Assembly: GCA_026388185.1 (NCBI GenBank)
Contig: JAPLKG010000006.1
Coordinates: 3,625-67,624, forward strand
Length of the DNA stretch: 64,000 nt
Origin: Candidatus Eisenbacteria bacterium
GTDB taxonomy: Bacteria; Eisenbacteria; RBG-16-71-46; JAFGJU01
Direction of reading: 5' to 3'
Both the position numbers and the translations under genes were made by a program. The first letter of the stretch is position 1, and the number at the start of each line of letters is the position of its first letter. Positions 103-4,314 of this stretch are shown piece by piece. The notes below the pieces were generated by a model. It was not told the origin of the DNA. It saw nothing but the letters and a program-made list of their open reading frames with translations, and did no database searches.

Positions 103-194
103 AGCACAAAAATGTAAGTCCCCGAAACTTGTTAAGTCTCAGGGACTTACCCGTTGGTAGCGGAGGCTGGATTTGAACCAGCGACCTTTGGGTT
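103..194. repeat. left att-like direct repeat (displaced tRNA 3' half plus terminator)
   Basis: This copy matches 4223-4314 at 88 of 92 positions. Read on the minus strand it contains a T-arm, an acceptor 3' strand, CCA, and a terminator hairpin (9-bp arms at 114-122 and 142-150) followed by a T-run. The tRNA 5' half is missing: beyond position 195 the sequence diverges and no matching acceptor strand is present. It therefore reads as the tRNA fragment left at the far end of an insertion. Confidence 0.8.
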
Positions 195-248
195 GTGAAA
201 ACCCAAGAGCGGCACATAATCGATTGTATGATAACGAGTTATTTATGG

Positions 249-268
249 CTGCTAACAGTCTGCTAACA
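249..268. repeat. short direct repeat near the left element end
   Basis: The 9-mer CTGCTAACA occurs at 249-257 and again at 260-268, a spacing of 11 bases, just inside the left att-like repeat. Helically phased short repeats here could be arm-type or accessory protein sites for recombination. The sequence shows only the repeat; the role is a guess. Confidence 0.3.
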
Positions 269-328
269 TTGCTTCTGGGAGCGATGCAAGACGTAAGGTG
301 AGGCCTTGTGTTTGTTTCAAATAGAATG

Positions 329-357
329 TTGACAAAATCATTTGTGTCTAATATAGT
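329..357 (+). promoter_or_regulatory. sigma-70-type promoter of the Fic gene
   Basis: TTGACA at 329-334 and TATAGT at 352-357 are separated by 17 bases. Transcription would start near 364, about 50 bases before the Fic ATG. This means the cargo gene carries its own promoter. Confidence 0.7.
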
Positions 358-413
358 TCGCGTTGTTAGATACAAAAATTGTCGCCTCAACTAGAATCCG
401 ACGGGAGGTAACT

Positions 414-1949: not shown

Positions 1950-2052
1950 TTCATCGGAACGGTGAAACAGCAAATTGGTCGAAACAGTGCGTTGTTCCAC
2001 TCCATTTGGAGGTTTATCGGAATGGTAAGACAGTCCAATTCGACGAAACCAG
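1928..2052. promoter_or_regulatory. nested palindromes and duplicated operator-like block
   Basis: CTGTTTCGA (1928-1936) is mirrored exactly by TCGAAACAG (1979-1987), and GTTTCA (1948-1953) by TGAAAC (1963-1968). In addition the block at 1948-1987 recurs in imperfect form at 2012-2052, so one copy covers the -10 and start point and the other covers the ribosome site and start codon. AbiEi-type antitoxins are known to repress their own promoters through inverted repeats, so these are likely binding sites of the adjacent winged-helix protein. The symmetry is seen; the binding is inferred. Confidence 0.6.
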
Positions 2053-3137
2053 AGAGTGACCTGGTAGCAGAAATATCCCAACGCCTTCAGGAAGCGCTTG
2101 AGGCAGTGCCGGTTCTCGAGATCGTGCGAATCGATCCACAAATTCCTCTCGCCTACGGGCAGAGGCCTGATCTAGTCGTCGACATTCGCACCCCTAGAGG
2201 ACCACAACGTCTCTTAGTGGAGATCAAGTCAGACGGGATTCCGAGAACGTTGAGGAGGGCGGCAGAGGCCCTTAAGGGGCGGCTCAGAAACGTGGAGGGC
2301 GCGTACGGGCTCTTGGCAGCACCGTATATCTCAGATCGTGGTCGTCGTGTATGCCGGGAGAATGGGATCGGGTGCTTTGATCTTGCTGGTAACATTTTCC
2401 TTTCTTTTGATCAGGTGTTCATCGAGAGAAGTGGTAAGCAAAATCCCACGCCTGCGCGGCGACTACAGAGATCTCTGTTCGCACCCCGCTCGTCGCGGGC
2501 GCTGCGAGTTCTTCTTAATAACCCTAATCAACGATGGTACGTGAGAGACCTGGCTGCCGAAGCTGGGATCAGTCTAGCACTAGCATCGAGAGTAAAGCAG
2601 CTTCTGCGCGACCAGGACCTTCTGGGCGAGGACCTTCGTTCCTTCTGGCTCTCGAAACCCGAAGACCTTCTTATGGACTGGTCAAAGGCTTACAGTTACG
2701 AGAAGAACGAGGTGTACTACTTCTACTCAATGCTACCCATTCCGGAGTTGGAAGAACGCCTGGCTACGGAGTGCGAGCGGACGACTATTCTGTATGGTCT
2801 GGCTCTGTTCTCCGGTGCGAACCGGGTTGCCCCCTTTGTGCGTTACAACCGTGCCTTTGCGTTCGTTGAGGGCAGACTCGGAGAGATTGTGGAGGCGCTG
2901 GACCTGAAGCAAGTTTCTTCGGGAGCCAACGTAGTGCTGCTGCGTCCGTATGACGAAGGGGTCTTCTATGGAGTACGGGAAGTCGGAGGCGCGAAGGTTG
3001 TGTCGGACTTCCAACTCTATCTTGACTTGAAGAGTTACAAAACCAGTGGTGCAGAGGCAGCGAACTTCCTCTTCGAAAGGTGGATAAAACCGCGATGGAA
3101 CCTAGGACCAAGTCAGACTACGCGACCAGAGCTGTAG
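2022..3137 (+). CDS. AbiEi-like winged-helix regulator/antitoxin with PD-(D/E)xK-like N-terminus
   Basis: The 371-residue protein has two recognisable parts. Residues about 12-135 resemble a restriction-endonuclease fold: RPD at 48-50 is followed by VEIKS at 66-70, the spacing of a PD-(D/E)xK centre, and then a conserved-looking GIGCFDLAGN at 115-124. Residues about 156-205 form a winged helix-turn-helix (YVRDLAAEAGISLALASRV). The rest is family-specific. This layout is typical of proteins annotated as type IV toxin-antitoxin AbiEi-family antitoxins paired with AbiEii nucleotidyltransferases. ATG 2022 is chosen because GGAGG lies at 2008-2012; the frame is open from 1875 but the upstream part covers the promoter. 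The next gene overlaps its 3' end. Whether the nuclease-like fold is active is unknown. Confidence 0.7.
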   Translation: MVRQSNSTKPESDLVAEISQRLQEALEAVPVLEIVRIDPQIPLAYGQRPDLVVDIRTPRGPQRLLVEIKSDGIPRTLRRAAEALKGRLRNVEGAYGLLAAPYISDRGRRVCRENGIGCFDLAGNIFLSFDQVFIERSGKQNPTPARRLQRSLFAPRSSRALRVLLNNPNQRWYVRDLAAEAGISLALASRVKQLLRDQDLLGEDLRSFWLSKPEDLLMDWSKAYSYEKNEVYYFYSMLPIPELEERLATECERTTILYGLALFSGANRVAPFVRYNRAFAFVEGRLGEIVEALDLKQVSSGANVVLLRPYDEGVFYGVREVGGAKVVSDFQLYLDLKSYKTSGAEAANFLFERWIKPRWNLGPSQTTRPEL

Positions 3138-3943
3138 AGGCGGCCTTCTCGGTGCTCCTCGAACTGTTCGGAATCCTCGGTGAGTTTCGAGAGTACGTCG
3201 CAGTGGTTGGAGGTTGGGTAACGCCTCTGATCTTCAGAAATGCAGAGACGGCGCCGGTAGGTACTCTTGATATCGACATCGCGATAGACTTCGCACGCGT
3301 CTCTCAAGATACCTATAAGACATTTCTCGAGACCCTTGGGTCACGAGATTACAGACAGCATCCTGAGCAACCATTCCGTTTTTTCAAGACCGTCACGCTT
3401 GGAAACGATCCACCCGTTGAAGTAGAAGTGGATCTTCTGGCGGGAGAGTATGGGGGGACGGGTAGCGGACACCGCACGCAGCAGGTCCAGGACGCGAGAG
3501 CCCGCAAGGCTCGCGGTGCTGATCTCGTGTTCGACCACTACGTGGAGGTCTCCGTCGAGGGGCGTCTGCCTAATGGTGCAGTCGACAGAGTAAGTATCAG
3601 AGTTGCCGATGTGGTGGCCTTTCTCGTAATGAAGGGGATGACCCTCCATGGGCGACGCAAAGACAAAGATTGTTATGATATCTTCTATTGTGCAGCCAAC
3701 TACCCCGGTGGCATCGAAGCACTCGCCAAAGTTTTTAGGCCTTTCATGGAAAACTCCCTGGTTGCAGAGGGACTGGCAAAGATACGCTCGAGATTTCTGT
3801 CACCGCTGCATGTAGGATCAGTTGCCGTTGCCGACTTCCTAGAGATCTCTGATCCTGAGGAGTGCGATATCGTCACGCGCGACGCGTACGAGCGTGTAAA
3901 TGCCCTGCTTGATCGCCTCAACATAGAGCCGTGGCAAGGCTGA
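3095..3943 (+). CDS. AbiEii-like nucleotidyltransferase (putative type IV toxin)
   Basis: This 282-residue protein has the polymerase-beta-type nucleotidyltransferase signature: a VVGGW turn followed by LDIDIAIDF with the metal-binding Asp pair, then a third acidic strand VEVEVDLLAG. Such DUF1814/AbiEii proteins act as toxins that nucleotidylate RNA or other targets and are neutralised by the partner AbiEi protein. The reading frame overlaps the upstream gene, so the two are translationally coupled. ATG 3095 has AAGGTGG (3078-3084) at a good distance; GTG 3080 in the same frame is an alternative that would add five residues. The C-terminal half contains GRRKDKDCYDIFY, a motif common in these enzymes. 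Toxicity and target are inferred from family only. Confidence 0.75.
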   Translation: MEPRTKSDYATRAVEAAFSVLLELFGILGEFREYVAVVGGWVTPLIFRNAETAPVGTLDIDIAIDFARVSQDTYKTFLETLGSRDYRQHPEQPFRFFKTVTLGNDPPVEVEVDLLAGEYGGTGSGHRTQQVQDARARKARGADLVFDHYVEVSVEGRLPNGAVDRVSIRVADVVAFLVMKGMTLHGRRKDKDCYDIFYCAANYPGGIEALAKVFRPFMENSLVAEGLAKIRSRFLSPLHVGSVAVADFLEISDPEECDIVTRDAYERVNALLDRLNIEPWQG

Positions 3944-4102
3944 TGCGAAGCAAGCTTTGTTTATAGCAGAATAGTAGCAAGATTAGTTGCGTCTAATAAT
4001 TGGGCAAATCCTAGATACAAACTGCCTGGTTGGCGATCTGACTGACGTTGCTACTGTAGCGTTGTCCAAGCGCCAGTCCAGGGATGGAAGGAGGTGAGAA
4101 AA

Positions 4103-4234
4103 ATGGCACAAGGCTCAATTGTGAAGCGAGGGGAAGTGTACTACATCGTCTATCGCGTCGGAGGAAAGGCAGAAGTGGAAGAGGATCAGATCGGGCAGGA
4201 GGGACGCGGAAGAGGTTCTTGTAGCACAAAAACG
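4103..4234 (+). pseudogene. tyrosine integrase N-terminal fragment, frameshifted and truncated
   Basis: A strong ribosome site (GGAGGTG at 4090-4096) precedes ATG 4103. The first 23 codons read MAQGSIVKRGEVYYIVYRVG and onward, an arm-type DNA-binding start seen in phage-type integrases. After GGK the family pattern continues only in another frame (QKWKRIRSGRRDAEEVLVAQ), implying a one-base insertion near 4169. The second frame runs straight into the att-like repeat and stops at the tRNA end, so the core-binding and catalytic domains are absent. No other integrase part is visible in the window. Confidence 0.7.
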
Positions 4235-4314
4235 TAAGTCCCCGAAACTTGTTAAGCCTCAGGGACTTACTCGTTGGTAGCGGGGGCTGGATTTGAACCA
4301 GCGACCTTTGGGTT
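4223..4314. repeat. right att-like direct repeat (functional tRNA 3' half plus terminator)
   Basis: This is the partner of the 103-194 repeat (88 of 92 positions). Here the repeat is continuous with the tRNA 5' half, so the tRNA gene stays intact. The acceptor strand pairs better with the 5' half than the left copy would, which has a T in place of one C. Confidence 0.8.
4227..4270 (-). terminator. Rho-independent terminator of the initiator tRNA
   Basis: On the minus strand, five bases after the CCA end, a 9-bp hairpin GTAAGTCCC/GGGACTTAC is followed by GTTTTTGT. The same hairpin is duplicated in the left repeat. Confidence 0.75.

What the first reader, a model, noticed from the sequence alone, without database searches (positions are those of the whole stretch)
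103..4314. Compact island in tRNA-fMet carrying Fic plus an AbiEi/AbiEii-like pair
Two 92-bp repeats (88/92 identical) containing the tRNA 3' half and its terminator enclose three cargo genes and a broken integrase start. A tRNA-integrated cassette of only a Fic enzyme and a nuclease-fold AbiEi/AbiEii-like pair is a good candidate defence or toxin-antitoxin island. Family assignment is from motifs; joint function is inference.
Basis: partly seen in the sequence, partly recalled or inferred. Interest (0 to 1): 0.8.

Follow-up and report, generated by a model that had tools for sequence, protein, structure and literature searches.

The report
tRNA-anchored defence module with nuclease-fused antitoxin
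A small, now immobile DNA island stuck in a bacterium's only start-tRNA gene carries two separate suicide-type anti-virus switches, one of which belongs to a widespread but little-studied toxin-antitoxin branch whose antitoxin carries an extra nuclease-like domain and a control site conserved across many phyla.

Summary
The direct repeats are 96 nt (91/96 identical) and hold the tRNA-fMet 3' half plus its terminator; the only intact tRNA-fMet is 4275-4351(-). Between them lie a class II Fic gene, an AbiEi/AbiEii-like pair and the first ~41 codons of a frameshifted, truncated integrase. eno-ftsB-tRNA-fMet is conserved across the class, and at least eight other class genomes have duplicated tRNA-fMet 3' halves, so this is an integration hot spot. 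The repeats do not bound the whole island: just left, outside the window, are a broken HmaC, PD-T7-4 and a REase-ARP gene.

The three genes are not one system. The pair is conserved alone (75/80 genome loci; closest relatives in tailed phages between terminase and portal); Fic is nearby in 4/80; the closest same-family Fic (63%) lies in a genome without the toxin; each unit has its own promoter. The pair is the COG4861/COG4849 branch, not canonical AbiE: the antitoxin is PD-(D/E)XK + winged helix + nucleotidyltransferase-like domain. A palindromic operator over its -10 recurs across phyla (45/81 upstream regions versus 3/4000 controls). Verdict: ordinary tRNA defence island; under-described toxin-antitoxin variant. 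Toxicity, phage protection and nuclease activity are inferred.

The parts
103..198 (-). distal attachment repeat: tRNA-fMet 3' half from the anticodon loop to CCA, plus terminator; no 5' half
4223..4318 (-). proximal attachment repeat, part of the intact tRNA gene plus its terminator
4275..4351 (-). intact tRNA-fMet (CAT), the only complete copy found in the genome
329..357 (+). sigma-70-like promoter of the Fic gene (TTGACA-17-TATAGT, 11/12)
342..376 (+). dyad site TTGYGTCTAATA-N13-TAGATACAAA over the Fic promoter, copy 1
414..1526 (+). class II Fic protein (370 aa): Fic_N + Fic, HPFLDGNGRIGR, inhibitory motif SSKIEG
1921..1949 (+). sigma-70-like promoter of the AbiE-like pair (TTGACA-17-TATAGT, 11/12)
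1949..1967 (+). operator TTTCATC-N5-GGTGAAA of the conserved TTTCASC-N(4-5)-GSTGAAA type, overlapping the end of the -10
2022..3137 (+). AbiEi-like antitoxin/repressor (371 aa): PD-(D/E)XK ~10-133, winged helix ~143-223, nucleotidyltransferase-like C-terminal domain (AbiEi_2) ~238-360
3095..3943 (+). AbiEii-like nucleotidyltransferase toxin (282 aa), overlapping the antitoxin gene by 43 nt
3987..4021 (+). dyad site TTGYGTCTAATA-N13-TAGATACAAA, copy 2, upstream of the integrase remnant
4103..4222 (+). remnant of a tyrosine-integrase N-terminus, frameshifted, cut off at the attachment repeat, reading towards the tRNA
   Evidence: same orientation as the integrases of fMet elements in G006 and G039
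4392..6146 (-). conserved chromosomal flank: ftsB-like gene and enolase upstream of tRNA-fMet

Best explanation
The region is the tRNA-proximal module of a larger defence island at the chromosome's tRNA-fMet gene. A tyrosine-integrase element entered at the tRNA's 3' half and kept the tRNA functional (shown by repeats and synteny). It then lost most of its integrase, so it cannot move on its own (shown by sequence). Its cargo is two independent growth-arrest units. (1) A class II Fic AMP-transferase, held back by its own inhibitory helix, that would AMPylate host proteins when triggered, most likely by phage (inferred from the Sofic family). (2) An autoregulated toxin-antitoxin pair of the COG4861/COG4849 branch. 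The AbiEi-like protein sits on a palindrome over its own -10 and represses the overlapping operon; its C-terminal nucleotidyltransferase-like domain blocks the toxin. When the antitoxin is lost or diverted, the AbiEii-like enzyme transfers nucleotides, most likely to tRNA as MenT toxins do, and arrests growth. The operator is shown by conservation; repressor binding, toxicity and tRNA as target are inferred. The N-terminal PD-(D/E)XK domain is most likely a DNA-binding or sensing, possibly cleaving, domain (inferred).
For: Repeats and tRNA; conserved eno-ftsB-tRNA-fMet synteny in over 20 genomes for eno (ftsB detected in most of them); independent fMet insertions in at least eight other class genomes, G006 and G039 with an integrase beside the tRNA in the same orientation; integrase remnant; island GC 51.3% against 57.6%. 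Fic: Pfam E 4e-19 and 1e-27, PADLOC SoFic E 2e-117, SoFic structures E about 1e-33. Pair: 75/80 genome loci, mostly overlapping by a few nt, across many phyla, on plasmids and in tailed phages between terminase and portal at 63%/73% identity. Toxin catalytic residues G39, G40, D59, D61, K180, K191, D192, D195 invariant in 88 sequences. Toxin model best matches MenT1 Z 13.0 (rmsd 3.4, 176 aligned), then MenT3/MenT4. Antitoxin domains: PaqCI/EndoMS/Can2 Z 9-10, winged helices Z 8-9, MenT1 Z 11.6 (rmsd 3.2, 119 aligned). Operator with at most 1 mismatch in 45/81 upstream regions against 3/4000 control windows. Adjacent HmaC fragment and PD-T7-4.
Against: No experiment. No empty site could be shown. 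The window's toxin itself hits no Pfam or NCBIfam model. A conserved arginine of AbiEii motif II is absent. MenT2, the toxin whose antitoxin is a COG4861 protein, was reported without detectable activity (PMC11375011, PMC7319586). Nearest neighbours of the pair elsewhere are mixed, many of them housekeeping genes.
Confidence: 0.72

Rival explanations
1. The pair is mainly an addiction or superinfection-exclusion module of the mobile element (phage- or plasmid-derived) that stabilises the island, not a host defence.
For: Closest relatives are phage cargo between terminase and portal; others lie on plasmids. AbiE systems are reported to stabilise plasmids and ICEs (PMC3985639, PMC11062541; the latter from its abstract).
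Against: The element has no intact integrase and should be stable without addiction; it lies beside PD-T7-4 and an HmaC fragment.
Confidence: 0.3
2. Fic and the AbiE-like pair form one three-gene system.
For: They share one small island; 3 of 93 nearest neighbours of the pair in other genomes are Fic-domain proteins, which may be more than a random gene would have (expectation not computed).
Against: Fic within the fetched loci in only 4/80; same-family Fic relative at 63% in G001, which has no AbiEii homologue; 495 nt between them and separate promoters; no AbiEi-type operator at the Fic promoter.
Confidence: 0.06
3. The island is decaying junk with inactive genes.
For: The integrase is broken; the neighbouring HmaC is a C-terminal half next to an insertion-sequence tail.
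Against: All three cargo frames are open and full length, the catalytic motifs are intact, and strong promoters with operators remain.
Confidence: 0.12

Closest known systems
COG4861 (PF09952 AbiEi_2) / COG4849 nucleotidyltransferase pairs, named beside AbiE in PMC3985639; M. tuberculosis MenAT2 has a COG4861 antitoxin (PMC7319586)
   Same: Gene order, overlap, AbiEi_2 domain above its cut-off (33 against 21 bits), DUF1814-type nucleotidyltransferase toxin motifs.
   Different: The papers found do not describe the N-terminal PD-(D/E)XK domain or the conserved operator reported here.
AbiE type IV toxin-antitoxin system (S. agalactiae AbiEi/AbiEii)
   Same: Antitoxin-repressor with winged helix and nucleotidyltransferase-like C-terminal domain; nucleotidyltransferase toxin; inverted repeats at the promoter.
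   Different: Winged helix is internal behind an extra nuclease-like domain; 371 aa; motif II arginine absent; sequence relationship very weak.
SoFic / Sofic class II Fic defence protein
   Same: Fic motif, N-terminal inhibitory motif, full-length alignment with SoFic structures, PADLOC SoFic model 390 bits.
   Different: NCBIfam SoFic equivalog scores 176.7 against a cut-off of 550; an AS1-type antitoxin gene is not recognisable.
tRNA-integrated genomic or defence islands
   Same: Duplicated tRNA 3' half, integrase remnant at the tRNA end, mosaic cargo.
   Different: Nothing fundamental; the target is the genome's only tRNA-fMet.

Membership tests
tRNA-integrated genomic island | direct repeats holding the tRNA 3' end at both ends, intact tRNA at one end | tested here: met
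tRNA-integrated genomic island | integrase gene beside the attachment site | tested here: inconclusive
   only an N-terminal remnant, same orientation as in G006 and G039
tRNA-integrated genomic island | empty site in a close relative | tested here: inconclusive
   no usable relative; gap in G002
AbiE type IV toxin-antitoxin (canonical, COG5340/COG2253) | overlapping operon, antitoxin before toxin | tested here: met
   43-nt overlap; 75/80 loci
AbiE type IV toxin-antitoxin (canonical, COG5340/COG2253) | toxin motifs hG[G/S]x15DhD with arginine in motif II, motif III K..R, motif IV +DxxD | tested here: not met
   G39-G40, D59/D61, K180/R187 and K191-D192-x-x-D195 are met; the arginine is absent and the spacing is 18 (against PMC3985639)
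AbiE type IV toxin-antitoxin (canonical, COG5340/COG2253) | two-domain antitoxin with N-terminal winged helix | tested here: not met
   three domains, PD-(D/E)XK in front
AbiE type IV toxin-antitoxin (canonical, COG5340/COG2253) | toxicity neutralised by the antitoxin without direct contact | not testable with these tools
   needs expression
COG4861/COG4849 branch | PF09952 AbiEi_2 above its cut-off in the antitoxin | tested here: met
   33 bits against 21; 53/54 family members match at E <= 0.01
COG4861/COG4849 branch | PF08843 AbiEii match in the toxin | tested here: inconclusive
   36/58 family members match, the window protein itself does not; PADLOC AbiEii E 0.001
MenT-like nucleotidyltransferase fold | fold of MenT toxins | tested here: met
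   MenT1 Z 13.0, MenT3/4 Z about 11.8, 168-221 residues aligned
SoFic defence protein | Fic motif HxFx(D/E)GNGRxxR and N-terminal inhibitory (S/T)xxxE(G/N) | tested here: met
   HPFLDGNGRIGR and SSKIEG in 414-1526
SoFic defence protein | NCBIfam NF046030 equivalog cut-off | tested here: not met
   176.7 against 550 bits; PADLOC SoFic matched, 390 bits
PD-(D/E)XK nuclease superfamily (N-terminal domain of the AbiEi-like protein) | fold and D...(D/E)xK residues | tested here: met
   EndoMS, PaqCI, Can2 Z 9-10; D50 78, E67 66, K69 71 of 84; NucS_C in 6/54. Activity not testable here.

The most novel reading that the evidence does not exclude
The COG4861-branch antitoxin is bifunctional: its PD-(D/E)XK domain cuts or senses invading DNA, and engagement of foreign DNA (or of its palindrome on phage DNA) pulls it off toxin and operator, so one protein joins restriction-like recognition to release of a tRNA-modifying toxin.
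Probability: 0.17. Interest if true: 0.75.

Novelty: new variant of a known kind. Interest (0 to 1): 0.45.

Why it matters
AbiE-type toxins paired with COG4861 antitoxins are widespread but almost unstudied. A three-domain antitoxin with a nuclease-like part, a cross-phylum operator and phage carriage gives a concrete, testable entry point. For the genome itself, the finding shows tRNA-fMet as a class-wide landing site that has gathered several defence genes.

Tried and rejected
Empty-site search: the same-family genomes G001 and G002 give nothing usable; sequence past the G002 gap maps to contig C20 of G000. Attachment site inside the integrase gene (SSV type): no C-terminal integrase piece at the left end; rejected from sequence. 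Close Fic relatives in viral contigs: none. The Fic dyad upstream of the G001 Fic: not seen. Anti-Sofic small gene: a 56-aa ORF at 1538-1708 follows Fic, no evidence beyond position. Solved structures by sequence for either pair protein: none. Defence enrichment among nearest neighbours of the pair: mixed, no background computed, no claim. A first alignment was too divergent for a genome scan. Papers linking AbiEi with PD-(D/E)XK: a search for 'AbiEi' with 'XK nuclease' gave four papers, judged from title and start of abstract only as unrelated to this architecture.

Full report
Observation. The two repeats are real: 103-198 and 4223-4318, 96 nt, 91 identical, with flanks that match no better than chance. 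Both hold the 3' half of tRNA-fMet and a long-stem terminator. The intact gene is 4275-4351 on the minus strand and is the only complete copy found in the 2.6-Mb genome. The left copy begins at the anticodon loop and has no 5' half.

Integration. In more than 20 genomes of the same class enolase lies upstream of tRNA-fMet, in most of them with a detectable ftsB-like gene between, so the right side of the window is chromosome and the insertion lies at the tRNA's 3' end. At least eight other genomes of the class (G006, G010, G016, G018, G031, G037, G039, G044) carry separate tRNA-fMet 3' halves starting near the same point. In G006 and G039 a tyrosine integrase lies next to the tRNA and reads towards it. 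The remnant at 4103 reads the same way, but only ~41 codons remain, split over two frames. The element is therefore a decayed tRNA-fMet element that could move only in trans. An empty site could not be shown.

The island is larger than reported. To the left of the repeat, up to the contig's start (C6:1-3726; the window begins at C6:3625), lie an insertion-sequence tail, the C-terminal half of HmaC (E 7e-99), a PD-T7-4 protein (E 4e-85; DUF4145) and a REase-ARP protein (E 1e-10). The repeats enclose only the tRNA-proximal module of a mosaic defence island whose far end is not assembled.

Fic gene. It has Fic_N and Fic domains, the motif HPFLDGNGRIGR and the class II inhibitory motif SSKIEG (and sequence). 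PADLOC's SoFic model fits (390 bits) and SoFic structures align (E about 1e-33), but NCBIfam's SoFic equivalog is far below its cut-off (176.7 of 550). It works like Sofic; it is not filed as a SoFic equivalog. Sofic acts by AMPylation and abortive infection (PMC12249575).

The pair. AbiEi-like 2022-3137 and AbiEii-like 3095-3943 overlap by 43 nt. Relatives: 63 plasmid records for the antitoxin and 66 for the toxin, 80 kept genome loci over many phyla, 75 of them with both genes, and three tailed-phage contigs at 63%/73% identity with the pair between the terminase large subunit and the portal protein. The antitoxin's Pfam family is AbiEi_2, PF09952, which is COG4861 (PMC7251935); PMC3985639 had already noted COG4861/COG4849 pairs next to AbiE proper. 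In the toxin the nucleotidyltransferase residues are invariant in 88 sequences, but the arginine of motif II of canonical AbiEii is absent and the motif I-II spacing is longer.

Structure. The AbiEi-like model (pLDDT 88.8) has three domains: residues 10-133 match PD-(D/E)XK enzymes (PaqCI Z 10.0, EndoMS 9.8, Can2 9.4), 143-223 winged helices (Z 8-9), and 238-360 nucleotidyltransferases (MenT1 Z 11.6, rmsd 3.2, 119 aligned). Sequence agrees: NucS_C hits in 6 of 54 family members; D50, E67, K69 conserved in 78, 66 and 71 of 84. The triad is thus common but not universal, so catalysis is unlikely to be essential in every member. The toxin model (pLDDT 91.7) matches MenT1 (Z 13.0), MenT3 and MenT4. 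A nucleotidyltransferase-like C-terminal domain has also been reported by DALI for canonical AbiEi (PMC7319586).

Regulation. A promoter with 11/12 consensus positions precedes each unit: 329-357 for Fic and 1921-1949 for the pair. Over the -10 of the pair's promoter lies GTTTCATCGGAACGGTGAAAC. The general form TTTCASC-N(3-6)-GSTGAAA occurs with at most one mismatch in 45 of 81 upstream regions of the family, against 3 of 4000 control windows, and once in this 64-kb window. The pattern was derived from some of these sequences, so the excess is partly by construction, but the spread over phyla and the recurring place at the -10 are not. It is the best evidence here that the branch autoregulates like AbiE.

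Independence of Fic and pair. Fic is within 4 of 80 loci; the closest same-family Fic, 63% identical, is in G001, which has no AbiEii homologue; the promoters are separate and the pair's operator is absent from the Fic promoter.

Mechanism and limits. Shown: anatomy, synteny, conservation, folds by prediction. Inferred: repression by the antitoxin, toxicity, tRNA as target, AMPylation, phage trigger, and any role of the PD-(D/E)XK domain. The library searched holds only open papers, so an earlier description of the three-domain antitoxin may exist elsewhere.

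Noticed in passing
outside the window, contig C6:155-3598 (L003:155-3598): HmaC C-terminal half next to an insertion-sequence tail, PD-T7-4 and a REase-ARP protein directly left of the island: more defence genes at the same tRNA.
   Followed up: partly
L036:6578-6942 (G003:C12): tRNA-fMet interrupted in the anticodon loop by a ~286-nt group I intron (Rfam RF00028, 51.6 bits), in the gene that other class members use as an integration site.
   Followed up: no
342-376 and 3987-4021: Two copies of TTGYGTCTAATA-N13-TAGATACAAA, the only ones in the genome, one over the Fic promoter and one before the integrase remnant: shared operator or recombinase arm sites.
   Followed up: partly
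L070:1092-1117 (G000:C3:31091-31116): 26-bp exact copy of the tRNA-fMet anticodon loop to T arm, with no tRNA, beside an ABC-F gene; may mark integration at a secondary site. No integrase was found on that contig.
   Followed up: partly
L003:1625-1890 and contigs C14, C19 (L194-L196): A repeated, palindrome-rich element of about 250 bp (69-92% identity) in several places of the genome, which also has four paralogous tyrosine recombinases on C1, C11 and C14.
   Followed up: partly
L072-L074: Tailed-phage contigs carry the pair between terminase and portal genes, with the operator intact: phages use this toxin-antitoxin pair as cargo.
   Followed up: partly
1538-1708: 56-aa ORF starting 11 nt after the Fic stop codon; its position recalls the AS1 anti-Sofic gene, no other support.
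   Followed up: no
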